From Candidatus Melainabacteria bacterium (GTDB lineage Bacteria > Cyanobacteriota > Vampirovibrionia > Obscuribacterales > Obscuribacteraceae): a DNA stretch of 64,000 nt. The stretch is taken from the NCBI GenBank assembly GCA_003242885.1, contig QKMZ01000002.1, forward strand, positions 124,001 to 188,000, read 5' to 3'. Positions 41,491-62,346 of the stretch are shown piece after piece. The position numbers were made by a program, and so were the translations under genes. Under the pieces are notes generated by a model that had not been told where the DNA came from, searched no databases, and worked only from the letters and a program-made list of their open reading frames with translations. Position 1 is the stretch's first letter; every line of letters starts with the position of its first letter.

Positions 41491-43050
41491 ATGGCTGACA
41501 GACCCATCGAACCAGGCAAGTACGACCCCAAGCAGACACCAGAAAGAAACGCTTCAGTTGATTCGACAGCTATTGTCGACAAATACAAATCTGATGGAGC
41601 AGAAGCTGCTTATCAAGCATTGCAGAAGGAATTAGATCCTCAGCAGCTCGCACAAAGAGGTGTCACCGACCAGCAACGAACCGCTTATCAAACTAAGTTG
41701 GTTGAACAACTTCAAACCGCCGGTGTATTGCCGGAAATCTCGATAGCAGCTGTCAAAGACAGAGCCGCTAAACCGGCAGATCAAGGTGGCAGCGACCTTC
41801 AAACAAACAATCAATACGACATCAACAAGATCAGAGCCGCACGTGATTCGGCAACAAATCCCGTCGACAAAGCGCTCTACACTGCATTCTCAGATAAGTA
41901 CAATGATCTGCGCAATGAAAACCGCAATGGACGTGGTTATGCGCCGGTTAACGATGCAGCATTGACTCGTCACATGGACAAGACGAACGCTGCTGCTAAA
42001 GAGAAAGCTCAAGACGATCAATTCAAGAAAGATATTTCTGTTTTGGCAACGCGTCCAGAAGTATTTGACGCAATTGACAAAGCTGGTACCGAAACTCGTA
42101 ACCGCGCTGGTGTCGTCCCAGAGAAGACTGACGGCAAGATAACCGACGAGAATATCGCCGCCTTTGACAAGAAGTGGAACGATCCAAACGAGACAGAGCG
42201 CAAGAAATTCCGTGATGGATTCGGTACGCAGGAGCAACAGGATCAAGTCGACCGTGCTGTAAAAGCTTTGAAGGGCGGACTCGAGCAGCCGAACCTCCTG
42301 AAACATGACATGGTTGAAGGGCGTTGGAACCCGTTCAACGAAAATGGCATAACCAAAGACACTCTGACAGCCGGATTAGGCGGACCTGAAGCCGTAGCGA
42401 AGTTTAAGCAGCAAGAGAATACTCGTCCTGATGGCACTGTCAGACCTGAGGTCGCTCCAGCTCAAAACTTTGCCGACAGTAAGCTTAACCGTGGCGAAGG
42501 ACCATGGCACGTTGCCAACCAAATGATGAAAGGCCAGGAGGGTCAGTTCCAAGATCCAGCTAAAGCACAGCGCGATCTAACCAAGGCACTTCAAAGTTCC
42601 TTCACTGATCGTCAGGGCGCCGAACAGCTCGCTAACGGCGGACGTGACAAGGTTCGCGAAGAAATTCGCAAGAGCGGTAATACAGAACTGCTTAACTGGT
42701 TCGATAAGCGATATCCAAAACCAGAAGGACCTGAAAAACCAGTTGTTAAGCCTGAACCTACAGCAGCGGCTGATTTCAGCAGCACCAAGCTTAAGGACAA
42801 AAATGATGGTCCCAGAGCTATTGCAGGTCGCATGACTCAAGGGCAGGAGCAGTTCTTCACCGATCCAGCCAAGGCGACAAGAGATCTCGCCAAAGCCATC
42901 GGCGTAGAATCTGGAATCCACAATTCCAAGCAAGGCGCGGAACAAGTGACCAAGGAAAACTACGACAATGTGATCAAGAGCATTCAAGCAACTAACAATG
43001 CTGAGTTGCTCGCATGGTTCCAAAAACGCTATCCAAAACCGAAAGCGTAG
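41491..43050 (+). CDS. Sister protein A: unknown, with duplicated C-terminal WF-RYPK domain
   Basis: 519 residues, highly charged, no signal peptide or TM; GGAGA lies seven bases before the ATG. The N-terminal half is helical with regular Asp/Lys/Gln content. The C-terminal third contains two tandem copies (about 325-415 and 425-519) of a roughly 90-residue unit: [ST]KL-x4-GP-x2-[VI]A-x2-M-x2-GQE-x2-F-x-DP-x-KA-x-RDL-x-KA, ending with N-x2-LL-x-WF-x-KRYPKP. The GP-x2-[VI]A part faintly recalls LysM, and I cannot exclude a wall-binding role. The related protein at 43415-44968 has the same architecture. The gene has its own terminator. Confidence 0.75.
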   Translation: MADRPIEPGKYDPKQTPERNASVDSTAIVDKYKSDGAEAAYQALQKELDPQQLAQRGVTDQQRTAYQTKLVEQLQTAGVLPEISIAAVKDRAAKPADQGGSDLQTNNQYDINKIRAARDSATNPVDKALYTAFSDKYNDLRNENRNGRGYAPVNDAALTRHMDKTNAAAKEKAQDDQFKKDISVLATRPEVFDAIDKAGTETRNRAGVVPEKTDGKITDENIAAFDKKWNDPNETERKKFRDGFGTQEQQDQVDRAVKALKGGLEQPNLLKHDMVEGRWNPFNENGITKDTLTAGLGGPEAVAKFKQQENTRPDGTVRPEVAPAQNFADSKLNRGEGPWHVANQMMKGQEGQFQDPAKAQRDLTKALQSSFTDRQGAEQLANGGRDKVREEIRKSGNTELLNWFDKRYPKPEGPEKPVVKPEPTAAADFSSTKLKDKNDGPRAIAGRMTQGQEQFFTDPAKATRDLAKAIGVESGIHNSKQGAEQVTKENYDNVIKSIQATNNAELLAWFQKRYPKPKA

Positions 43051-43099: not shown

Positions 43100-43414
43100 T
43101 TGTTGTGTGGGTTTTTTCCTTGGAGCGCAATTTCAGTTTTGTACTTCAAGTTAGCGCCAACGCAGTTCCACTTATATTCGCCCCAGTCGCGCTCCGCGTA
43201 CTTTCCGCTCTATCCGTCACGAAGCGGTCACGTTGGTGCGGAATAATCAAAAACATCCGAAGGGCGACGAAAGCCCACTTTCCCCTCAATTAAGAGATTC
43301 CCCGCCCTCCCCGGGCTGCGCTAAAAACTCTGCATTCCAGCCGATGCTTTCAAAAGGAAGGATCTGAGGCAGGTAACCGCGCGCGCCCAGCCGCTTTTCT
43401 CAGGAGAATTGACA

Positions 43415-44968
43415 ATGGCAGAAACAGCACAACTCTACGACTCCGCTAAAGGTCCGACAAAGGAAGCCGCGGCGGATGCCGCAAACATCAGAACGGTGCT
43501 GGAAAAGGAAGGCTCGGATGCGGCAGTGACGAGGTTGCGTAGTGAGGTTGAGTCGGTACCTGAGCGTGATCGTCAGGCTTATAGCACGGCTCTATTTAAA
43601 AACCTGACTGGGGATAGCAATAAGCTGCCAAACATTTTGCCAGATATGGCAATCGCATTCGGAATGCAGAATTCCAATTCCTTTATGGAGCAAAACAGAT
43701 GGAAATGGAATAGTGATGAGCGCATCGTCAATGCGGACAAGCTTACTTCCGCCGCGTCTAAAGAAACAAATCCAATCTATCAAGAACTCTACCGGGAGAT
43801 GTACAACAAATTCCGCTCTATCAAGACTGAAAACGGCGCTCATATTGATCCACTGGACTCATATACTCAAGGCTCTCGCATTCTTCGAGACTATGTTGTG
43901 CCTGAAGGTCAGTTAAAGCAGCAGCTTGCCACTGATGCCGTGCGCGCTGACAACCGCCGACAATTTGGTGTCCTTGCTTCCAATCCTAAATTATTCGGTG
44001 CCATCGCCAATGGTGGCGAGATAACCCAGGATAGTTTGAAAGCATTTAGCGATAACTGGAATCAAACCGGCACAAATGGCGCAGATTTCCGCAAACAGTA
44101 TGCGTCTACGCCAGAACAGCAAAGACAGATTGGGCAGACTCTCGACAATCTTAAGTACGCATTTGATGACGATAGGCACAAGGACAACAAGCCAGGCTCA
44201 GTCCTTCAAGACAACAAAGCTGGTTTTATAGCGAGACACGTTAACGACTACTTCCATGGTTATGGCAAGATGACGCAAGAAAGTTTGTTGAATGGACTTG
44301 GTTACAAGTCTATGGAAGAAGCGAAGCTTCGCCTTCCTGCAGACGTTGGTGGCAAGCCTCTTTCTGATGTGGTTGCGCTCACGAATTATGACAACACCAA
44401 GCTGCGCAACAGGCAAGATGGACCGATGGAACTTGCTCGCAGAATGCTATCGGGGCAAGAGAAACATTTCAAGGACGCACCTGGAGGCGCAGAGCAGGCT
44501 GTTAAAGACTTGACCAACGCGTTGGCTCCAGCTGCGGGTACCTTCGTTGATAAGGCTGTCAATCAGGTCACACCTGAAAATCGCGACAAGGTAATTCAGA
44601 ACATTGCGGCTACAGGCAACGACAGATTGCGCGATTGGTTTGTCAGCCGCTATCCTGCCGACATGTCTGCAGCCTCTACAACAGCTGCTGCAGGACCGCT
44701 GGATAACTCATCTTCCAAGGTTGTGACGAAACAAGGTTCGGATGCGGTTGCGACCAACATGCTTAAGGACGCCGGTCTAGGTCACTCAGAGATGAAGGCT
44801 CTAAGTAATGTCTTATACAAAGATCTCGGAATCAACTGGAGTTCGGTGCATGCCGGCACGCCGCTAATCACTGAAGAAAACCTCGAGACTGTCCGCGAGA
44901 AGATTGCGGCGAAGAACAACGACAAACTCATTCAATGGTTTGACAGCAAATATCCGAAGAGAAACTAG
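43415..44968 (+). CDS. Sister protein B: paralogue with the same repeated C-terminal domain
   Basis: 517 residues from the ATG at 43415, which has AGGAG eight bases ahead; a TTG two codons earlier is too close to the SD. Overall order equals sister A: helical N-terminal half, then two copies of the C-terminal unit. Copy 1 (NYDNTKLRNRQDGPMELARRM...WFVSRYP) is close to those of A; copy 2 (SKVVTKQGSDAVATNMLK...LIQWFDSKYPK) is diverged in its first half but keeps VRxKIAAKNNDKLIQWF. The pair likely arose by tandem duplication, then diverged; nearly equal length suggests conserved function. No export signal is seen. Function unknown. Confidence 0.75.
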   Translation: MAETAQLYDSAKGPTKEAAADAANIRTVLEKEGSDAAVTRLRSEVESVPERDRQAYSTALFKNLTGDSNKLPNILPDMAIAFGMQNSNSFMEQNRWKWNSDERIVNADKLTSAASKETNPIYQELYREMYNKFRSIKTENGAHIDPLDSYTQGSRILRDYVVPEGQLKQQLATDAVRADNRRQFGVLASNPKLFGAIANGGEITQDSLKAFSDNWNQTGTNGADFRKQYASTPEQQRQIGQTLDNLKYAFDDDRHKDNKPGSVLQDNKAGFIARHVNDYFHGYGKMTQESLLNGLGYKSMEEAKLRLPADVGGKPLSDVVALTNYDNTKLRNRQDGPMELARRMLSGQEKHFKDAPGGAEQAVKDLTNALAPAAGTFVDKAVNQVTPENRDKVIQNIAATGNDRLRDWFVSRYPADMSAASTTAAAGPLDNSSSKVVTKQGSDAVATNMLKDAGLGHSEMKALSNVLYKDLGINWSSVHAGTPLITEENLETVREKIAAKNNDKLIQWFDSKYPKRN

Positions 44969-45039: not shown

Positions 45040-48000
45040 CTAGGGGATTAGTGTGCCACTATTGCCGTCTTCCAAATTTTGATCTGTTTCTCTTTGCGTG
45101 GAAATGCCGTTGTCGGAATCTTTGTTGTTTTCTGGCTTAGTGCTGCCACCAGTGACACCTTTCAGCCCTTGCAGGATTGAGAGTGTCACTTCCCTTGGCT
45201 TGCCTACTAGTTTTCTTTCTTCCATTAGAGCAAGCTCGCGTGCGACTTCTTCGTCTGTGCGCTCCGGCTCTAGGATTGCAACTATATCTCGGTAATAGAG
45301 TGTTTCTTTCTCCATCAGCGCTTCGGCGAGTTTTTGAACTTTGTCTTTGTGCTGTCCTAGCAACTTGTTCACGCTTTCCTTGCAATCATTGATAATTTGC
45401 ATGGTTGCGAGTTCCAACTGGCGCTCTGTTTCTGGAGAAGGTCCGGCCGCATCCTCATGTCCAAATGCCACATTGGTATTGAAAGTGAAGTCTTTCGCCA
45501 TGCCCCATTCCCGAACCATTGCTCGAGCACAGGAAGCTACATTCCTCAAATCTGAACTGACTCCTGAGGAAGTTTCCTTTAAGAACATGTTCTCTGCCGC
45601 CCAGCCGCCGAGTGCAATTTCAATACGCACCATCAAATCATGTCTGTCTCGATGGTTGCGATCTTCCTTGCCGACATACCAGACGTACCCAAGTGCATAG
45701 CCACTTGGAACGACCGTAACGACCTGAATTCTGTCGCGCTTGTTGCGGAAGTAGGCAGCTACGGCGTGTCCCGCTTCGTGTATTGCGGTGGCGCTTAATT
45801 CCTCCATCAGTATATGACGGCTGTAGGACATACCGAAACTTTGCCTTTGAATAGCCTGAATTAGGTCAATCATCGTAATTTCTTTTCGCCCTTCACGAAC
45901 GGCGATCAGGCCTGCTTCATTGACGATGTTGGCAATATCTGCGCCCGAGTTCCATACAGTCATGCGAGCGATTTCGCGCAAATCGATTTTGCATTCCATC
46001 TTGAGTTTCTGGATGTAGTGCTTGAACATCGCCTCGCGACCTTCGAGGTTAGGCATCGAGATATTGATGCGTCTGTCGAACCTGCCTGGACGTAGCAATG
46101 CTGGGTCCAGCAATGAAGCATTATTGGTGGCGCCTATGGTGAGTACTTTGTGTTTGCCGAAGCCGTCCAGTTCAACTAGGAACTGGTTCAAGGTCTGGTT
46201 TTGCTCCTGCTTGCCGCCGCCGCCGTAGTCACGGCCTCGATGACCAGCGATACCATCAATTTCGTCAATAAATACTATCGCAGGCTTGCCACTGCGCCTT
46301 GCTTGCTCATATACAGCTCTTACGCGAGCGGCTCCTAACCCTACCCAGACCTGTGCAAAGTCGCTGCCGCTGAGTGCGTAGAATGGTACACCCGCTTCGT
46401 TTGCAATGGCTTTGGCAAGCATAGTTTTACCGGTTCCAGATGGTCCTACAAGGAGAACACCCTTTGGTGCCTTGAGACCAACTTCTTGCACAAGCTCCAT
46501 GTTTTTGATTAAGGCTACTACTTCAGAAGCTTCTGCCTTTGCTTCTTCCATGCCTTTAACGTCGTCGAGTTTAACGTCGACATCGGGCAGTCGAGCCATG
46601 TTTATGCCAGTAGTGTTCATCTTGTGTCCGGCAGTTGCAGACAATTTTGTAATTGCTTCTGCCAGGTCAGCCTCGATGAATTTCTTTCGATTGTTTCTTA
46701 CCGCAAGAATAGCCGCTTCGTTGACTGCGGCAGCAACGTCGGCGCCGGCAAAGTTTACGCTCTGTTTCGAAAGTTCTTCTAGATCAAATTTGCCTTCGTT
46801 CTTGACCTTGCTCATGTAGAGCTCGAACATTTTCTTGCGTGCATCGGAGTCGGGTAGACCGATGTAGATCTTTCGATCAAATCTGCCAGCACGATAAAAC
46901 GCAGGATCTAGATTCTGCTCTTGGTTGGTAGCGCCGATGGTCAGAATATTGCTGCGGCTAAACCCATCTAGTTGAACGAGGATCTCATTCAATTCGCTCG
47001 TACGGTTGTTTCCGACATCTGTCATCGTTCCTGCAATCGCATCGATTTCATCAATGAATACGATTGCTGCAGGGCTTTTTCTCGCTTGAGTATATAGAGC
47101 TCTAAGTCTCGCGGCGCCCTCTCCATCAAACATGCTCTTGAAATAAGATGCGGAAATTCCATAGAACGGCACACCTGCTTCGTTAGCGATTGCTTTGGCC
47201 ATTAGGGTTTTGCCAACGCCAGGTGGTCCGATTAGTAGAATGCCGCGTGGCACTTTTGCACCCATCTCACGAAGTTCCGAGCCTTGGCGCAAGAATGAAA
47301 TGACTTCAGATACGTCCTGTTTTGCGTCGTCGATTCCAATCACATGATCCAGTTTGACTGTCGGATCCGGGTTTGGAATGACAATGCCAGAATCAACTAG
47401 AACGCGATCATTGCCCATAGAAACACGGTCCAGGGCTTGTTCCAATATGTCTGTAGTGACACGGTTTGGACCACCAGGACGCGTACTCACAAGTGCTGCT
47501 TCGTTGACGATTTGGTAGATGTCTGCCGGAGAGAAGCCCTGGGTCAGGCTCGCAATATGTTCAACATTTACTTCTGGGTCGTGCGAAACTCTTTCCAGGT
47601 AGTATCTGAAAATCCTGACGCGCTCTTCCGGATTTGGAATTTGGAAATAAATGCGTCTATCCATACGGCCTGCACGAGTTAGACCCGGATCCAGACCGCC
47701 ATCAAGGTTGGTGGCACCTATGACCAACAAACGCGACGCGTGGAACCCATCCATTTGCGTTAGCAGAGTATTGAGAGTCATGTTCATGTCAGACTGTCCA
47801 CCGAAGCCTCTGTCTTGCCTCCGGCGTGTTGCCATTGAATCGATCTCGTCGATAAACAAAATCGCACGATCATGACGCTTCAGCTTCGCAAAAAGAGTTT
47901 TTAACTTGAGAACCCCCAAGCCAAAAATGAGTCCACTGATACCACCGCCCTCAACGACGTAAAATGGCGTACCGACTTCGTTTGCTATGGCTCTTGCGAA

Positions 48001-48447
48001 AAGCGTTTTACCTACGCCAGGAGCGCCCACGAAAAGCATTCCTTTTGGTAATTCAGCACCGGAAGCTGCATACTTCTCTGGGTTCTGAAGCATATCTATT
48101 ACTTCTTTGATTTCCTGCTTTGCTTGCTCATTGCCAATCAATTCGTCCAATGTCTTTGGAGCCTTAGGATTAATCCTGGGCTTTTCGAACATGAATGGAA
48201 GTACGCGTTCCCAAATAGGTTTTGGTGCCTTCGAATCAGCACGCGGTGGCAGCGGAAAGATGATCGAAAGTACGATGTACCACTGCATCAAAATCATAAT
48301 TGCGCCGAAAACAGCAGCGGCAAACACAGACGTTACTGAGTACTTGAGCAACGCAGGAAAAGAGGCAAAGGGGTTCCAAAACTGCGCTGTGCACAGCAAG
48401 AGCAACATCCATAGAATTAGAACAGTCCATCTCGCCCAATTTTTCAT
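45040..48447 (-). CDS. FtsH-like membrane protease with three AAA+ modules and one M41 domain
   Basis: About 1135 residues (numbered here from a TTG three codons upstream; the ATG at 48447 with GGAAG ahead is the better start). Two TM segments (about 10-27, 40-67) with only a short loop between, so the usual FtsH periplasmic domain is missing. Then three complete AAA+ modules: Walker A GAPGVGKT (144-151), GPPGVGKT (410-417), GPSGTGKT (671-678), each with FIDEID Walker B (about 200-206, 467-472, 729-734) and a GRxDR arginine-finger block. The M41 metalloprotease follows with HEAGH (893-897) and the third zinc ligand in SSDL (Asp969). Normal FtsH has one AAA module in about 640 residues. Pore loops differ: LIFGLG, MFDGEG and VWVGLG. 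All key residues look intact, so an active ATP-driven membrane protease is inferred. Confidence 0.93.
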   Translation of the reverse strand: MKNWARWTVLILWMLLLLCTAQFWNPFASFPALLKYSVTSVFAAAVFGAIMILMQWYIVLSIIFPLPPRADSKAPKPIWERVLPFMFEKPRINPKAPKTLDELIGNEQAKQEIKEVIDMLQNPEKYAASGAELPKGMLFVGAPGVGKTLFARAIANEVGTPFYVVEGGGISGLIFGLGVLKLKTLFAKLKRHDRAILFIDEIDSMATRRRQDRGFGGQSDMNMTLNTLLTQMDGFHASRLLVIGATNLDGGLDPGLTRAGRMDRRIYFQIPNPEERVRIFRYYLERVSHDPEVNVEHIASLTQGFSPADIYQIVNEAALVSTRPGGPNRVTTDILEQALDRVSMGNDRVLVDSGIVIPNPDPTVKLDHVIGIDDAKQDVSEVISFLRQGSELREMGAKVPRGILLIGPPGVGKTLMAKAIANEAGVPFYGISASYFKSMFDGEGAARLRALYTQARKSPAAIVFIDEIDAIAGTMTDVGNNRTSELNEILVQLDGFSRSNILTIGATNQEQNLDPAFYRAGRFDRKIYIGLPDSDARKKMFELYMSKVKNEGKFDLEELSKQSVNFAGADVAAAVNEAAILAVRNNRKKFIEADLAEAITKLSATAGHKMNTTGINMARLPDVDVKLDDVKGMEEAKAEASEVVALIKNMELVQEVGLKAPKGVLLVGPSGTGKTMLAKAIANEAGVPFYALSGSDFAQVWVGLGAARVRAVYEQARRSGKPAIVFIDEIDGIAGHRGRDYGGGGKQEQNQTLNQFLVELDGFGKHKVLTIGATNNASLLDPALLRPGRFDRRINISMPNLEGREAMFKHYIQKLKMECKIDLREIARMTVWNSGADIANIVNEAGLIAVREGRKEITMIDLIQAIQRQSFGMSYSRHILMEELSATAIHEAGHAVAAYFRNKRDRIQVVTVVPSGYALGYVWYVGKEDRNHRDRHDLMVRIEIALGGWAAENMFLKETSSGVSSDLRNVASCARAMVREWGMAKDFTFNTNVAFGHEDAAGPSPETERQLELATMQIINDCKESVNKLLGQHKDKVQKLAEALMEKETLYYRDIVAILEPERTDEEVARELALMEERKLVGKPREVTLSILQGLKGVTGGSTKPENNKDSDNGISTQRETDQNLEDGNSGTLIP

Positions 48448-48468
48448 ATCATTCAACTTCCGTAATTA

Positions 48469-55789: not shown

Positions 55790-56755
55790 CTAATGACGAT
55801 GGCGGCGGTGATGGCGCTGCGGCGGATCTGGTGCGTCTTGCTGACGTACTCCTGCAAAACTGAAGTGATGCAAGTCACCTTTGATTGGTCCTTTGCTGTC
55901 ACCTTGTCTCCAACCGTTTGCAAGCAAGGCGCGCTTTACGTCAGGGTCTTGCCAGTTGGACACATCCATCGCATTGCCACGAGTGTGATTGGAGAGTGTA
56001 GGTTTTCCAGCCGCGAAATCGCGTCCGTTTCTGCTTCTTGAGCGGATTTCGGTTTGTGTATCTACAGTCCTTCCCGCTCCATTTTTGTCAGAGACGATAA
56101 TTGATTTGCCTTTCGCCGCGAGCTGTTCTTGCGCTCGTGCAAACGCTTGTGCCGCTGGACCTGAGAGCCAATAGTCCTGGGTTTCACCGCTCCTGTTGCG
56201 CGTTGATGTCACCAGACCCTTCTGTCCGATGTATAGCGCGTCGGGTACGCGAGCTAAAATGTTTTGATCGCGGACGGGCTCAAGTAGCCTCTTTGCGTCG
56301 AGTCTGCTGAAGTCCAAATTGCCGCTTGGTGAGAGGCGGTCTCTCCCCTGGGTAATGTCAGGAAACGCAGTAGGCGGTAGTGATGCCCTTAGCTGGCGCG
56401 GTCCGAGTCCTGTCGTTTGGCGCTCCGGCAGCGGATTGATAGTTATCGTCTTGCCGGCGGCGAGTGCATTCCAGTCGATCAAAGAGCGTCCGCTAGCTTG
56501 ATCCTGAAGCGCGGGATACTGCATCCCGGGGCGTTCTGCCGGGCGCGCGGTCAGACCCAGCATCTCATTTAAATTCTGTCGGCTTATATCCGGCATAGAC
56601 GCTGCTGTGATCTCGTTTTTCGTCCAGGCCGCGCGCGCAATGCTGCGCCAGGCTTCGCTTGCGTCATCTGCAGAGGCGGCGGCGAAATTCCTTTCGGTTG
56701 ATTGTTCTTGACTCTGCGCAGTAAATCGCTGTGGGGGTGTTGCGGATTCCGTCAT
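55790..56755 (-). CDS. WxxIAxxxW protein with M15-type peptidase C-terminus
   Basis: 321 residues. N-terminal motif: W36RSIARAAW44, then NEMLGL (residues 63-68), as in its two operon partners. The middle is Pro/Arg/Gln-rich. The C-terminal domain (about 165-305) ends with His257-Thr-Arg-Gly-Asn-Ala-Met-Asp264 and GDLHHFSF (His297), the zinc-binding pattern HxxGxxxD...H of M15/VanY-type D,D- or L,D-carboxypeptidases and endolysins, which cut peptidoglycan stem peptides. A His/Arg-rich tail (HHRRHRH) closes the protein. No Sec or Tat signal is present, so export, if any, must use another route. Confidence 0.75.
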   Translation of the reverse strand: MTESATPPQRFTAQSQEQSTERNFAAASADDASEAWRSIARAAWTKNEITAASMPDISRQNLNEMLGLTARPAERPGMQYPALQDQASGRSLIDWNALAAGKTITINPLPERQTTGLGPRQLRASLPPTAFPDITQGRDRLSPSGNLDFSRLDAKRLLEPVRDQNILARVPDALYIGQKGLVTSTRNRSGETQDYWLSGPAAQAFARAQEQLAAKGKSIIVSDKNGAGRTVDTQTEIRSRSRNGRDFAAGKPTLSNHTRGNAMDVSNWQDPDVKRALLANGWRQGDSKGPIKGDLHHFSFAGVRQQDAPDPPQRHHRRHRH

Positions 56756-56759
56756 GGCG

Positions 56760-57068
56760 TTATTTCGAAATTCTTAGGGCGGTAAGTTGGGCTAGAACGC
56801 TATGCGTCTCAATATCCTGGATGGACCTGATCGTGCCGTGGGCGCGGACTTTTGGTACTCGATTTTCTGGTAAGTGAAACGGAAAAGTTAACGGTAAGGC
56901 GGTTTTGAAGAAACGAATAGGTGTGCGGCCTGAACTCGAGAGCTCAAGGCCGTTTTTCACGAATCGGATGTACTTATCTGGGGTCGGTGCTGGTCGACTC
57001 CAGGACGAAAGATCGTCCCACCCTAACGGTATGACAGGGAGGGTGACTTTTACGTGAAAAATCTTCAC
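56760..57068 (-). CDS. Small unknown protein translationally coupled within the WxxIAxxxW operon
   Basis: 102 residues from a GTG that overlaps the previous stop as GTGA; AAGGAGA lies five bases before it, so it is surely translated. Begins KIFHVKVTLPVIPLGWDDLSSWSRP, continues with KYIRFVKNGLELSSSGRTPIRFFK and LPLTFPFHLPENRVPKVRAHGTI. It looks beta-rich, perhaps a small barrel. No family recognised and no WxxIAxxxW motif. Placed between the hydrolase and the M15 genes, it may be a chaperone or inhibitor of one of them. Confidence 0.65.
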   Translation of the reverse strand: MKIFHVKVTLPVIPLGWDDLSSWSRPAPTPDKYIRFVKNGLELSSSGRTPIRFFKTALPLTFPFHLPENRVPKVRAHGTIRSIQDIETHSVLAQLTALRISK

Positions 57069-58345
57069 GGCACTCTCCTTTCGGATTTAAGGAGTTGGCG
57101 TAAATAGACATGGGTCATCGCTCCGTGCGCGCCATCGCCCCTGTTGGTGAACTCGCTTCTTTTGAAAACGAAGCCGTGCTGAGCGATTGCGTCTGGGCTG
57201 ACGAGTCCGGTGCCTCTGGCGTGGTCTTTATAGATGCTTTGATTACCTAAACCTGCTCGCGCCAACTGTTGCTCTACTCGCCCTTGCAAGCCGGTGCTCT
57301 GATTCGCTAAATGTCCGGTGTAGATCAATTGGAAGTGCTTATTTCCTGAAGCGAGGTCGCGAAGATTGCTCTTTATCCAACCGTCGTAGGCAGTCGGGTT
57401 GTACATTGAATCGAGTACCGTCACCGAAGTGATTTTGTCCTGAAGTCCATTTTTGTAGAGCTGCGCGATTGAAGGGTTGTAGCCTGCGGAATGCGAGATG
57501 ATGCCAATGCTTGCCAAATTGTCGACGTTCTTGCCTGCCAGTTCCGGTGTTTTCTTCATGATTTCGTTGAACATGTTGCGGTAGAAGTTGGGCTGATCAG
57601 AACGCCCGCGCGCGGAGCTGTTGGAGCCCGGGGACGCCTGCCATTCCGGAACGACGAGAATCGTTTGAGGATCTGCCGAGCGCATTTGTTCTCTCAACTC
57701 GCTATAGCTGATAGCTGCATGTGCATCGGTTCGAAAGCCGTGGTTGTAAACGAGCATGCGCGTGGGTTTTTGCGGATCATAGCCTTGCGGAATGATCACG
57801 GATGCATCGACTTTGTGTCGGCCAGTATTGTTTTGGAGTTGGAATTCGTAGACCTTGCCCAGTCCACCTTCGGGCGCGACTATGCGGCGACCAGCTTCTC
57901 CTGCCCTATCCCCCTGGCCTCTTAGCTCCGGCTGACCGGTTCTACCCCGCTGGCCGGCTCGCTCCATTTGTATGTCCGGCAGTTTCACAATGGCGTTTCT
58001 TTGCCCTTCTGCACCGGTTGGGGAAATTCTTGTTTTGGGAAGAAGTCCACGGTTTTCCAGTTGGGCTTGCACATCGGGAGGCTGTATTCCTTGAAACTGC
58101 ATTGCAGCAATTGGTGTGCTCAGACCAAGGCTGTCGCTCAGTGCCTTTGGCACGCTGAAGTCCATTGGTTTGCCGTTAGAGCCCACTGCGTCGCTTTTCG
58201 AGGAATCGCTGCTCCAGATTTTGCTGGCAATCGAGGACCAGGTTTTACTAGTTTCGCAGGACGAAAAATTTGAAACGGCATCCCCTGCCGGTTGCGCCGC
58301 AGAGCGTTCTGAAACAAAATCTGATTGCTGTGATGTTTGTGCCAT
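57065..58345 (-). CDS. WxxIAxxxW protein with alpha/beta-hydrolase C-terminus
   Basis: 426 residues. N-terminal motif W36SSIASKIW44, then SDSLGL (70-75). Residues about 110-165 form a Gly/Arg/Gln-rich linker. The hydrolase domain opens with ASVIIPQGYDPQKPTRMLVYNHGF (oxyanion region, 201-204), has the nucleophile elbow SHSAG with Ser286, an Asp candidate at 312 (TVLDSMYN) and a His near GAHGAMTHVYL. The fold resembles esterases acting on polymers or peptides. No signal peptide. Second gene of a four-gene minus-strand operon, 57 bp behind the RlpA-type gene. Confidence 0.75.
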   Translation of the reverse strand: MAQTSQQSDFVSERSAAQPAGDAVSNFSSCETSKTWSSIASKIWSSDSSKSDAVGSNGKPMDFSVPKALSDSLGLSTPIAAMQFQGIQPPDVQAQLENRGLLPKTRISPTGAEGQRNAIVKLPDIQMERAGQRGRTGQPELRGQGDRAGEAGRRIVAPEGGLGKVYEFQLQNNTGRHKVDASVIIPQGYDPQKPTRMLVYNHGFRTDAHAAISYSELREQMRSADPQTILVVPEWQASPGSNSSARGRSDQPNFYRNMFNEIMKKTPELAGKNVDNLASIGIISHSAGYNPSIAQLYKNGLQDKITSVTVLDSMYNPTAYDGWIKSNLRDLASGNKHFQLIYTGHLANQSTGLQGRVEQQLARAGLGNQSIYKDHARGTGLVSPDAIAQHGFVFKRSEFTNRGDGAHGAMTHVYLRQLLKSERRVP

Positions 58346-58402
58346 AAGAGATTCCGTTAAAGAGCTTGGTGCGTGCGGAATGTGAAAGTGCTGGAAATGT
58401 GG

Positions 58403-59701
58403 CTATGTGCGGCCATCTGCCGTTATCCTTTTTACTTGTGCGAGAAGTTCTTCTTTACCGTCTTTTCTCAAATTGCGTCTGGCATTGCCCCATGCTCGAT
58501 CGGCTGGAATGCTTTCCACTGTTATTTCCATAGCTCTCGGCGTTGTGTCTTTCATGCCGATTGCGTTCGCTGCGCCGAGGGATATGTCCAGGACGCGGTT
58601 GTGGACCTTTTCACTACCGTCTGGGCGAGCTTCTTTCTTGCCCGCAAAAGGTCCGTTATCAGTGATTACAACGCGTGTTTCTTTGCCGTTTTCAGGATTT
58701 CGCACTTTGAGAACAGTGCCAAAGGGAAACTCTCGGCTGGCAGCGGTGAGTTCGTTTTTGTTGAACCTTATCCCGCTTGCTGTGCTGCTGTCTTCCCAGT
58801 AAACGGAGGTAATGCCTTTGAACTTATCGCCTTCGCCATATTTGCGTTCGTAGGGACTCTTCCATTCACCTGGCTTTTCTGGCTCTTTCTTTGCAGGTTC
58901 CAGCCTTTCTTCCGGTTTTTTCTTCAGGTCTTCAGCAGATTGCTTTGCTTCTTTGTCTGGGTCGGTCCTGCGTTTGTCAGCCGTTTTGGTGTCTTTGCCA
59001 CCAGGCTTGGTGCCCTCGCCAATTGTTTTTTCGTTGTCGGAAAGCCTGTCTAGTAAAGCGACTCCACGATTTTTATAATCAACAGCCTTGCCGTTTGCGT
59101 CTTTCTGCGGGTTCAGAGATCCGTCGGCGTTTTGTATTGCTCGTAAAGCATTCAGTTCGCCGCCATTCTTGCCTGAGACGTAGACACCAAGCATACTCCT
59201 GCTTTTGGAGATTTCCTCTTTCTCAAGCCTGACTTTGTTGATCGCGCCGTCAGCGCTTTGCACTGAAAAACTTGTTACGCCTGCGCTGACGAGTTCGCTA
59301 GCCGCTTTCAGTCGGTCTTGAGGATCAGCTTTTGAATTCATGACTGTCTCAGTGCGTTTTTTGTTGTCTCCTTGAAGAGCTTTAGGGGTGTCAAAACCTT
59401 CAACTCGCGCTTCTGCTGTGACGCCCGCTCTTGTGTCTGCGCTGTCCTGAACGATGCTCAGGTCTGGAATGGTGCCGCCTTTAACCAGGTCTTGCTCTTT
59501 TGAGCCGCCAATTCCGAGTGCGTCACCGATTTTCTGCCCTGCTGAGGCGACGCACCCTTTGAGGTCGCCATTCCAGCACTGGCTAGCAATGTCAGACCAT
59601 GTACTTGTTTTGGGCGGAGAAAAATCGACTGTATCGCTGACGACGGGCGCGGCCGGGCGCTCCGAAGCAGCACCCTGGTGTTGTGCTGTTTCTGCTGTCA
59701 T
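58403..59701 (-). CDS. WxxIAxxxW protein with RlpA-like barrel C-terminus
   Basis: 432 residues from the ATG at 59701; a GTG at 59770 would add 23 residues, but alignment of the N-terminus with the two sister proteins favours the ATG. N-terminal motif W35SDIASQCW43 followed by GDALGI. Middle: a long Lys/Glu/Pro-rich linker (PDKEAKQSAEDLKKKPEERLE). C-terminus (about 290-420): an RlpA-type double-psi beta-barrel with TSVYWEDSSTASGIRFN, FGTVLKVRNPENGKETRVVITDNGPF and DISLGAANAIGM. RlpA barrels act as lytic transglycosylases on denuded glycan strands. No signal peptide. First gene of the operon. Confidence 0.78.
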   Translation of the reverse strand: MTAETAQHQGAASERPAAPVVSDTVDFSPPKTSTWSDIASQCWNGDLKGCVASAGQKIGDALGIGGSKEQDLVKGGTIPDLSIVQDSADTRAGVTAEARVEGFDTPKALQGDNKKRTETVMNSKADPQDRLKAASELVSAGVTSFSVQSADGAINKVRLEKEEISKSRSMLGVYVSGKNGGELNALRAIQNADGSLNPQKDANGKAVDYKNRGVALLDRLSDNEKTIGEGTKPGGKDTKTADKRRTDPDKEAKQSAEDLKKKPEERLEPAKKEPEKPGEWKSPYERKYGEGDKFKGITSVYWEDSSTASGIRFNKNELTAASREFPFGTVLKVRNPENGKETRVVITDNGPFAGKKEARPDGSEKVHNRVLDISLGAANAIGMKDTTPRAMEITVESIPADRAWGNARRNLRKDGKEELLAQVKRITADGRT

Positions 59702-59850: not shown

Positions 59851-62211
59851 TTACCGGATCGTGACGTGCTGCTTGAGTTCGGCGCCGAACATTCTTTCGC
59901 GGAGTTCTGGAACGAACCTTTGTATAGACAAATCTTCGGTTGCGTTGAAATCTCGCAGTCGATCTTGAATCTGCCTATCGGTGAGAAAGGCGCTGTAATT
60001 TTTTAGCGCAGGCAGTTTCTGCGTTTCAAAAAAATGCTGGTCGCGCGTCCAGTAGTGGTTGATACGGACCTGCTCTACACTGACATACGAAGAGCGGCTG
60101 CCGCTCATCGGAATCTTCTCTTCATTTACCTGTGTGCCGTGTTTTACATATTTTGCAAAATGCGGGTTGGTGACGCGTATTATCAGCTCCGGGCGGGAGA
60201 TTGTTTTGACATGCAAATTATCCTCGTTGTTTGCTTCGGCGCAACGAGTCAGCATTTCAATCATGAGCTTATCTTCTGGAATTCCTTGGCAGTTTGATGT
60301 TCCAAACATTTGCCAATTGACTGAGAGTCCGCCGAAATCTTCGTAATCTTCGAGAAGATCAGTAAGTTTCTCTTCTTTAGTCGGATAGAGATACTCATCT
60401 ACATCTATTAAAGCCAGCCATTTTGCGGATTCTGCAGTTAGATCGACAATGCGTCTGTAAGCGCTGCATTGAATATTGTTGAAGTCTTCTTGCGATTTGA
60501 TCTCAATTGGCCAGTGGTCAAGTTTGACAATGCCTGATTTTATGTACGGTTTGAGAACAGATTCAAAATCGTCTGTGCTCAAATTGTTGAACAAGTAAAA
60601 GCGTTCTACTCCAACGAGCATGTGGAATTCGAGCCATTCTTTCAGGAAGGGAGCCTGATTTTGAATGATGGCGCCAACGACAAGCTGGTTGGGATAACGC
60701 GGTCCACGCGTGTTTTTTTTGCTGCGTGTCTTTTGAGTTGTGCTTACTTGTGTGTTGGTTGCGGTGCTCGCTGTTGCGTTGCTTGTTGCCGCATTTTTTG
60801 ATGAGCTGTTCGATGCGCTGTTTGATGAGCTGTTTGATGCACCTGTTGTCGAAGGCGCTGGCTGACGCGTAGATTGCTGACCTGGCGCGCTTTGGCTACC
60901 TTTCGTTCTGCTGGTGTTAGCGCTGGGGCGATTCTTCTTGCCGAAAAGAACTTCCGGGGCGCGTTTTGGTGCAATTTGCTTTTGCAAAGTTCTGAAGTGT
61001 CGCGTCAATTTCCACGATCGACTTTTCAGAACTCGGCGAATTGACTGGCGTAAATACTGGATGTACTCTTCTTGCGCGTCCAGTGAAAGAGTGAATTCTT
61101 CAGTTGCCTTCTCATCGCCTCCGCTGCCGATGAGTTTGTTTATCTCTCTCAGGCTTCGCGTAAGTGTCCATGATGGAGTATCCATCACGCGCCGAAGATC
61201 CGCTTCCAGTTCGCGAATTCTCAGCTCTCTTCGCAATGCGCCCATGGGAGTGTCCTCTCCATCGCCTGATTGGGCAAGCACAAGCATCGTATGAAAGAGT
61301 GCTTCTTTGAGACCAAACATATCTTCGCGGCGAAGAAATTGGTCGTTGTGCAATTTCTTTTCGTTCAGCTCGCCAGTGTCGATAAGGTTGCTTAGAGCGC
61401 AGGAGAGCCAATAAAGAGTTTCGCGGACAAACTTGTGGCGAGACTTGCCGATTTTTTTCAATGAGCTTTCCATCGCGTATGACAGATGGACAATGTCGGA
61501 GGCAAGCCACAGTTGGGCATTATTGGCAGCCGTCGCACCGCTTGCATGTTTTCGGAAGCTGGCAAGTTCTTCGTTAATGAAGGCGTAGTCGCCTTTTTGC
61601 AAAATCCGAAGCCAGTACTCAATGTCACCGATATGGCGAAATTGCGTGGCGAAGCCGCTGCCTACGGAAGTCTTCCGGAACATCACCGTGCAGGGCTCGC
61701 CTATGATATTGCGCAATGGGTCGAGACTGTGGCTGATTATGTCTTCTGCAGCATAGAAGGGCTCCGAGCCGAAAAGGTCTAAGGCCGTGACAATGCCTTC
61801 GTGAGGAATCGATCTCCCGTTTTCGTCGATTACTTTTCGACGCGAGCTTACTAAAGCAATCTTTGGGTTCTCTTGAAGAACTGCGACCTGGCGTTCAATA
61901 AGAGTTGGCTCCCAGAGATCGTCCTGCGCGTGAGGCTTGATGTATTCGCCTTTTGCTCGCAGCAGGCAAATGTTGTAATTCTGAAAGAGTCCCAGCCGCT
62001 GATCATTTTTTGAATACCGGATGCGGGGGTCATTCTTTGCATATCGCTCAATGATTTCAAACGTGGCGTCTGACGAGCCATCATCTGAAATTATGAATTC
62101 GAAATTCTGGTAAGTTTGCCCAAGAGCGCTTTCGATTGCCTGAGGCAAAAATTCGGCGCCGTTATAAGTCGGCAAGCATATTGAAACTAGGAATTCCACC
62201 AGGCTGCCCAT
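59851..62211 (-). CDS. GT2-GT92 fusion glycosyltransferase
   Basis: About 786 residues from the ATG at 62211; the frame extends to a TTG at 62271, which I consider less likely. The N-terminal GT2 domain has VSICLPTYNGAEFLPQAIES, the DDGSSDATFE nucleotide site and HAQDDLWEPTLIERQ. The middle is helical (about 250-400), then comes a low-complexity Ser/Asn/Thr/Ala-rich linker (SNSSSNSASNSSSKNAATSN). The C-terminal GT92/DUF23 domain has VVGAIIQNQAPFLKEWLEFHMLVGVERFYLFNN, the LIDVDEYL Asp pair and NHYWTRD. Two transferases in one chain suggest successive additions to one glycan. No membrane segment. 150 bp upstream of the WxxIAxxxW operon on the same strand. Confidence 0.85.
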   Translation of the reverse strand: MGSLVEFLVSICLPTYNGAEFLPQAIESALGQTYQNFEFIISDDGSSDATFEIIERYAKNDPRIRYSKNDQRLGLFQNYNICLLRAKGEYIKPHAQDDLWEPTLIERQVAVLQENPKIALVSSRRKVIDENGRSIPHEGIVTALDLFGSEPFYAAEDIISHSLDPLRNIIGEPCTVMFRKTSVGSGFATQFRHIGDIEYWLRILQKGDYAFINEELASFRKHASGATAANNAQLWLASDIVHLSYAMESSLKKIGKSRHKFVRETLYWLSCALSNLIDTGELNEKKLHNDQFLRREDMFGLKEALFHTMLVLAQSGDGEDTPMGALRRELRIRELEADLRRVMDTPSWTLTRSLREINKLIGSGGDEKATEEFTLSLDAQEEYIQYLRQSIRRVLKSRSWKLTRHFRTLQKQIAPKRAPEVLFGKKNRPSANTSRTKGSQSAPGQQSTRQPAPSTTGASNSSSNSASNSSSKNAATSNATASTATNTQVSTTQKTRSKKNTRGPRYPNQLVVGAIIQNQAPFLKEWLEFHMLVGVERFYLFNNLSTDDFESVLKPYIKSGIVKLDHWPIEIKSQEDFNNIQCSAYRRIVDLTAESAKWLALIDVDEYLYPTKEEKLTDLLEDYEDFGGLSVNWQMFGTSNCQGIPEDKLMIEMLTRCAEANNEDNLHVKTISRPELIIRVTNPHFAKYVKHGTQVNEEKIPMSGSRSSYVSVEQVRINHYWTRDQHFFETQKLPALKNYSAFLTDRQIQDRLRDFNATEDLSIQRFVPELRERMFGAELKQHVTIR

Positions 62212-62346
62212 TCCATGGTAATCAATCGGACAATTATTACATGCCGATGGGTTGTGAATTCTCAGCCACAACAGTTAGACTTTCCTCATCGCGTCACGAT
62301 CCTGCGGCCGGCGAGGCTTGAGCAGTCTATTGAAAAGCGCTAATAG

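What the first reader, a model, noticed from the sequence alone, without database searches (positions are those of the whole stretch)
55790..59701. Operon of three proteins sharing a short N-terminal WxxIAxxxW motif in front of three unrelated catalytic domains
Seen: W35SDIASQCW43, W36SSIASKIW44 and W36RSIARAAW44 at the same distance from the start, each followed by a (D/E)-x-LG(I/L) element, then a disordered linker, then RlpA barrel, alpha/beta hydrolase or M15 peptidase. None has a Sec or Tat signal although two of the C-terminal domains belong to wall-acting families. Inference: the N-terminus is a sorting or export signal, or a docking tag to a common machine, delivering wall-active enzymes. 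This may be an undescribed secretion or toxin-like delivery system.
Basis: partly seen in the sequence, partly recalled or inferred. Interest (0 to 1): 0.8.

Follow-up and report, generated by a model that had tools for sequence, protein, structure and literature searches.

The report
Signal-less wall-enzyme trio sharing N-termini
Three neighbouring genes of a non-photosynthetic cyanobacterium (Obscuribacteraceae) encode likely cell-wall-cutting enzymes that lack any ordinary export signal but share a short front end, and they belong to a family-wide set of similarly built proteins with a previously unlisted domain, which suggests (but does not prove) a dedicated delivery route.

Summary
Observation confirmed. 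Three co-oriented genes (55790-59701, minus strand) encode an RlpA/DPBB, an alpha/beta-hydrolase-like and an M15-like protein. Each carries W-x-x-I-A-x3-W at residue 35/36 and an x-LG element, and has no Sec/Tat-like N-terminus. The trio is kept in 5 of 8 species of the genus, its N-termini are under purifying selection, and no other protein found in those genomes carries the motif.

The wider finding: the RlpA protein also carries a ~105-residue domain ("MD") without Pfam or PDB-fold match. MD occurs in >90 places in 28 of 45 Obscuribacteraceae genomes and in 0 of 29 outside the family. About 40 MD proteins read all lack a signal peptide; many end in wall-acting domains (DPBB, M15, GH75 chitosanase, CHAP-like and others). 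W-x6-C-[WLF] heads MD proteins of three further genera, including Candidatus Obscuribacter phosphatis.

So this is a modular, effector-like enzyme family. The delivery machine is unproven. Sheath-based systems (eCIS, T6SS) were not found. A conserved chromosomal T4SS-like locus is the best candidate; C-terminal arginine enrichment fits but weakens to p=0.03 once relatives are collapsed. The W motif is not a general export signal, since most MD proteins lack it.

The parts
58403..59701 (-). Gene 1: RlpA/DPBB protein, 432 aa (N-terminal module, LP element, MD, disordered linker, DPBB domain)
   Evidence: ORF, Pfam DPBB_1 E 1e-13, syntenic orthologs in G002, G004, G005, G007
59573..59599 (-). Gene 1 W motif W35SDIASQCW43, on predicted helix 35-44
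   Evidence: sequence; AlphaFold2 helix, pLDDT 59-69
59507..59524 (-). Gene 1 x-LG element D60ALGIG65
   Evidence: sequence and ortholog alignment
59453..59488 (-). Gene 1 LP element L72VKGGTIPDLSI83
   Evidence: recurs upstream of MD in about half of MD proteins; uneven statistical support
59036..59368 (-). MD, family-specific domain, residues about 112-222
   Evidence: profile hits in 28 of 45 family genomes, 0 of 29 outside; well-folded model without PDB match
58547..58819 (-). DPBB (RlpA-like) domain, residues 295-385
   Evidence: Pfam PF03330; PDB sequence match 4avr
57065..58345 (-). Gene 2: alpha/beta-hydrolase-like protein, 426 aa
   Evidence: ORF; homologs across the family, with and without Sec signal; no Pfam match
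58214..58240 (-). Gene 2 W motif W36SSIASKIW44
   Evidence: sequence and orthologs
58025..58060 (-). Gene 2 LP element L96ENRGLLPKTRI107
57074..57859 (-). Gene 2 hydrolase-like region, residues about 163-424
   Evidence: region shared with homologs in other genera
55790..56755 (-). Gene 3: M15-like peptidase protein, 321 aa
   Evidence: ORF; orthologs in G002, G004, G005, G007
56624..56650 (-). Gene 3 W motif W36RSIARAAW44
   Evidence: sequence and orthologs
55847..56176 (-). Gene 3 M15-like core, residues about 194-303
   Evidence: SNHTRGNAMD and DLHH in window and orthologs; Pfam cut-off not reached

Best explanation
The trio is one locus of a family-wide set of modular, effector-like enzymes of Obscuribacteraceae that act on cell walls outside the producing cytoplasm. 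SHOWN: shared N-terminal motif, lack of a Sec/Tat-like signal, conservation and selection, recurrence of the same architecture (N-terminal motif, LP element, MD, charged linker, wall-acting domain) in other genera. INFERRED: the N-terminal segment (with MD where present) is a recognition or docking module, the enzymes leave the cell by a non-Sec route, and the most likely machine is the conserved chromosomal T4SS-like apparatus whose VirD4-like ATPase would recruit them, much as X-T4SS or Bartonella effectors are recruited. Targets would be walls of competitors or prey (peptidoglycan; chitosan for GH75 members). My estimate: non-Sec export about 0.55; T4SS specifically about 0.3.
For: Trio syntenic and selected in the genus. 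W-motif module heads MD proteins of three other genera. MD in 28/45 family genomes, none outside, joined to DPBB, M15, GH75 and other wall-acting domains. No signal-like N-terminus in about 40 MD proteins, while homologs of the same catalytic domains carry Sec-like signals. Chromosomal locus with VirB4-like and VirD4-like ATPases, syntenic with O. phosphatis, and PF02534 in 42/45 family genomes. Eligible T4SS signal types include basic C-termini, N-terminal and internal signals (PMC10025392, PMC11288057); signal-less enzymes have Arg-richer C-termini.
Against: No localisation or activity data. No genomic link between trio/MD genes and the T4SS-like locus. Genomes without MD also have the T4SS-like VirD4 gene. 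Arg enrichment weakens to p=0.03 after collapsing relatives and the hydrolases show no contrast within the genus. No obvious immunity gene beside the trio. Most MD proteins lack the W motif. T1SS, T7SS and compartment genes were not searched.
Confidence: 0.42

Rival explanations
1. Lysis-released lysins: the enzymes accumulate in the cytoplasm and reach walls only when a subpopulation lyses; the shared N-terminus mediates storage or assembly of the three proteins.
For: No export signal and no neighbouring machine; the N-termini of genes 1 and 2 are homologous, as expected of mutual assembly; phage-like lysin families such as M15 are used this way elsewhere (established knowledge).
Against: No holin-like or phage genes beside the trio or the MD genes examined; the architecture spans many scattered loci and genera; EF-hand and GH75 members are not typical of lysis cassettes.
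Confidence: 0.25
2. Shared leader without targeting role: the three N-termini are relics of gene duplication and fusion, used for stability, regulation or binding of a cytosolic partner, and the enzymes act inside on unrelated substrates.
For: Genes 1 and 2 share 46-48% identity over residues 2-49; the motif is confined to a few proteins per genome; RlpA copy lacks the His conserved in Sec-bearing paralogs.
Against: The motif recurs outside the genus before other wall-acting domains and stays under purifying selection; several different wall-acting families would have to turn cytosolic independently.
Confidence: 0.15
3. Cargo of an internal compartment (encapsulin or microcompartment-like): the N-terminal helix is a packaging tag.
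For: A short helix plus disordered linker is the general form of such tags (own knowledge); the hydrolase has no clear family.
Against: C-terminal domains repeatedly belong to wall-acting families whose homologs are Sec-exported. Shell genes were not searched.
Confidence: 0.06
4. Export by a type I, type VII or other untested system, with the N-terminus or MD as its signal.
For: Signal-less, modular architecture; these systems were not tested.
Against: No such genes beside the trio or MD genes examined; type I signals are usually C-terminal and type VII substrates usually carry WXG or LXG features, which were not seen here (own knowledge plus sequence).
Confidence: 0.12

Closest known systems
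X-T4SS antibacterial effectors (X-Tfe, TfcB; Xanthomonadales; PMC11253643)
   Same: A shared recognition domain joined to varied enzymes including wall-acting ones; no Sec signal; recruited by VirD4
   Different: Their recognition domain (XVIPCD) is C-terminal and immunity genes adjoin; here the shared parts are N-terminal and central, MD had no significant PDB fold match, and no immunity gene was seen
Bartonella Bep effectors (BID domain plus basic tail; PMC10025392)
   Same: Folded shared domain plus basic C-terminal tail, modular enzymes
   Different: BID was not detected; MD is a helix-helix-beta domain placed before the enzyme; targets differ
T6SS MIX effectors (PMC10025392)
   Same: N-terminal marker in front of diverse effector domains
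   Different: No T6SS VipB gene found in the family
Vampirovibrio chlorellavorus T4SS (PMC4451040)
   Same: Same class; proposed T4SS-based predation
   Different: The proposal concerns a conjugative, plasmid-rich system; the locus here is chromosomal and no relaxase match was seen among the proteins scanned
RlpA, M15 and GH75 enzymes
   Same: Catalytic-domain homology (firm for DPBB and GH75, weak for M15)
   Different: The Sec-exported relatives carry a signal peptide; these carry a new N-terminus instead, and the RlpA-like copy lacks the paralogs' conserved His

Membership tests
X-T4SS effectors (X-Tfe) | C-terminal XVIPCD domain | tested here: inconclusive
   No PDB sequence match to the trio beyond DPBB and no significant fold match of the gene 1 model; XVIPCD not compared directly
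X-T4SS effectors (X-Tfe) | Adjacent immunity gene | tested here: inconclusive
   The only extra ORF inside the trio (102 aa) is not among ORFs of 90 aa or more in G005; the neighbouring 126-aa conserved ORF has no signal peptide by inspection
X-T4SS effectors (X-Tfe) | Recruitment by VirD4 | not testable with these tools
   Needs a binding or secretion assay; a VirD4-like gene exists
T6SS effectors | T6SS present in the genome | tested here: not met
   VipB (PF05943) 0 of 74 genomes, control rings in E. coli
eCIS cargo | Contractile sheath present in the genome | tested here: not met
   PF04984 in 0 of 45 family genomes
T7SS substrates | WXG100/LXG features and a T7SS | not tested
   No family search was run; no WXG motif noticed in the N-termini
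RlpA family | DPBB domain | tested here: met
   PF03330 E 1e-13, above cut-off
RlpA family | Sec or lipoprotein signal | tested here: not met
   Hydrophilic N-terminus; Sec-like signals present in the genome's paralogs
RlpA family | Conserved His and Asp of the active groove | tested here: inconclusive
   Asp of TDNGPF kept, His of FHG(R/K)xTASG absent by comparison with paralogs; catalytic role recalled from memory
M15 peptidases | Zinc motif SxHxxGxAxD and later (D/E)xxH | tested here: met
   SNHTRGNAMD and DLHH, kept in orthologs
M15 peptidases | Pfam M15/VanY profile above cut-off | tested here: not met
   M15_4 E 0.11, VanY E 0.12

The most novel reading that the evidence does not exclude
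Obscuribacteraceae use a chromosomal T4SS without an evident relaxase, reading a new N-terminal and central module (W motif, LP element, MD), to deliver an arsenal of peptidoglycan- and chitosan-cutting enzymes to other cells: an undescribed competitive or predatory system in non-photosynthetic cyanobacteria.
Probability: 0.22. Interest if true: 0.85.

Novelty: new variant of a known kind. Interest (0 to 1): 0.6.

Why it matters
If exported, these proteins define a delivery route and an enzyme arsenal in an uncultured cyanobacterial family whose way of life is poorly known, and MD gives a searchable marker for finding the cargo. Vampirovibrio, of the same class, has been proposed to prey through a T4SS (PMC4451040), so whether its relatives do something similar becomes testable with named genes. 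Even if not exported, a family-specific folded domain joined to many different wall-acting enzymes needs explaining.

Tried and rejected
W motif as a genome-wide tag: rejected, only the trio or single MD proteins carry it. LP element as a standalone family: leave-one-out profiles only partly recover members (E 0.002 to not recovered), so it is suggestive only. eCIS and T6SS: no sheath genes found in the family. Fold of MD: no significant PDB match (full model and MD alone), and none in the viral library with the full-length model. MD profile hits to designed TIM barrels and coronavirus 3C proteases judged spurious. The genome-contig scan with the hydrolase found no relative; the MD profile is too divergent for that tool. 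The 102-aa ORF between genes 2 and 3 (56760-57068) was not found in G005 and was dropped. Sec/no-Sec calls for three proteins were corrected by eye. No paper describing this family was found.

Full report
CHECK OF THE OBSERVATION. The three genes lie on the minus strand in the order RlpA-like (58403-59701), alpha/beta-hydrolase-like (57065-58345) and M15-like (55790-56755), with gaps of 57 and 309 bases. The motifs W35SDIASQCW43, W36SSIASKIW44 and W36RSIARAAW44 are there, each followed by an x-LG element. In 864 kb of the same genome (673 called genes) W..[IVL][AS]...W is found in these three proteins only; shuffling gives 0.32 proteins per sample in the first 90 residues. Because the pattern was taken from these proteins, the stronger evidence is conservation: the trio is kept in G005, G007, G004 and (over two contigs) G002 of the same genus, and the N-terminal 80 codons show pN/pS of about 0.3-0.4 with near-saturated synonymous change. 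The open frames leave 6-27 residues upstream of the chosen starts; the longest, in gene 1, is hydrophilic. SignalP was not available; absence of a signal rests on hydrophobicity.

CATALYTIC PARTS. The DPBB domain is firm (Pfam E 1e-13). Compared with the genome's Sec-bearing RlpA paralogs it keeps the Asp of TDxGPF and lacks the His of FHG(R/K)xTASG, so it may not be a lytic transglycosylase. The M15 assignment is below Pfam cut-offs but has SNHxxGxAxD and DLHH, and MD relatives touch VanY. The hydrolase has no profile match; NHG, SHSAG, LDS and AHG have counterparts in a Sec-bearing paralog (L017) and support an alpha/beta hydrolase by inspection only.

A FAMILY-WIDE ARCHITECTURE. Gene 1 contains a further domain, here called MD (residues about 112-222). 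A profile of MD finds more than 90 places in 28 of 45 genomes of the family and none in 29 genomes of other families of the order and class. About 40 MD proteins were read. None has a signal-like N-terminus, apart from one ORF whose called start is too far upstream. C-terminal parts are DPBB, M15, GH75 chitosanase (Pfam E 5e-13 and 5e-9), a CHAP-like domain (E 0.016), a 3D-like domain and a putative cell-wall hydrolase (the last two by inspection; Pfam gave no match), or no evident enzyme (EF-hand or R/H/D-rich types). In G001 one protein joins the W motif, MD and M15, and in G004 the RlpA protein has an extra M15 domain, so the modules shuffle.

THE MOTIF OUTSIDE THE GENUS. W-x6-C-[WLF] heads MD proteins in three other genera: EWGDISRQCL and relatives (G060, G061, G062, G017, O. 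phosphatis), AWGDASRACW (G032), AAWKAESQACW (G061). In the window trio the Cys is kept only in gene 1. The motif is thus a conserved module of a subset of this family and not a genome-wide tag. A second element, L...G.[IL]P.(L).I, or its LP..xI core, lies upstream of MD in about half of the MD proteins, in trio genes 1 and 2, and in other signal-less proteins; its statistical support is uneven.

STRUCTURE. AlphaFold2 gives MD with high confidence (pLDDT above 93 inside the full-length model, 86.7 alone): helices followed by a beta-meander, without a significant PDB match. The W motif falls on a predicted helix 35-44 followed by helices 47-61 and 66-74, at low confidence (pLDDT 59-69).

WHICH MACHINE. 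No secretion genes adjoin the trio or the MD genes examined. Phage/eCIS sheath genes and T6SS VipB were not found in the family. PF02534 (VirD4/TraG) occurs in 42 of 45 family genomes. One form of about 1000 residues, about once per genome, lies beside a VirB4/TraC-like ATPase, a one-TM protein of 219 residues (VirB8-like by layout), a multi-TM protein of 1688 residues and a small pilin-like protein; the cluster is syntenic between this genome and O. phosphatis, and no relaxase match was seen among the proteins scanned. Component names beyond the two ATPases are inference. T4SS substrates may carry basic C-terminal, N-terminal or internal signals (PMC10025392, PMC11288057). The signal-less enzymes have more Arg in the last 15 residues than Sec-bearing relatives (2.36 versus 1.00), but relatives are not independent; collapsed by family and genus p is 0.03, and the hydrolases show no contrast within the genus. 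The T4SS step is therefore the best available guess and no more than that.

JUDGEMENT. Shown: a real, selected, shared N-terminus; a family-specific modular architecture; no Sec-like signals; no sheath-type machines found. Inferred: docking role, non-Sec export, T4SS, wall targets. Against: no localisation data, no evident immunity genes, no genomic link between trio and T4SS, MD-free genomes that also have the T4SS-like locus. Rivals are lysis release, a non-targeting shared leader, compartment cargo, and other untested export systems.

COMPARISON. On paper it works like X-T4SS or Bep effectors (a shared recognition domain with varied enzymes), but membership is not claimed: XVIPCD was not detected (not compared directly), immunity genes were not seen and VirD4 dependence is untested. 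The novelty lies in MD and the architecture; the enzymes themselves are of known kinds.

Noticed in passing
window 45040-48456 (-): 1138-aa FtsH-like ORF with three AAA modules in tandem and a single HEAGH (M41-type) site.
   Followed up: no
window 41491-43050 and 43409-44968 (+): Two 519-aa signal-less paralogs; the first has an LP element (LQTAGVLPEISI) near residue 74, like trio genes 1 and 2.
   Followed up: partly
L250/L251 (own C6:216249-234430) and L252/L253 (O. phosphatis C1:2303870-2319967): Conserved chromosomal T4SS-like cluster with VirB4- and VirD4-like ATPases, multi-TM and pilin-like proteins, and no relaxase match among the proteins scanned.
   Followed up: partly
L188/L189 (G012:C1 about 858985-874785): Giant ORF (5269 aa) with at least two MD copies.
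   Followed up: no
L014, L015, L144-L146, L152-L155: A second signal-less M15 family of about 580 aa, found in most genomes of the genus.
   Followed up: no
L203, L204, L205, L206: Short MD proteins without an enzyme domain, some in tandem, with an LP element and often EF-hand-like stretches, beside response regulators and histidine kinases.
   Followed up: no
window 59851-62271 (-): Glycosyltransferase with a GT2 domain fused to a GT92-like domain, directly upstream of the trio and kept there in G005.
   Followed up: no
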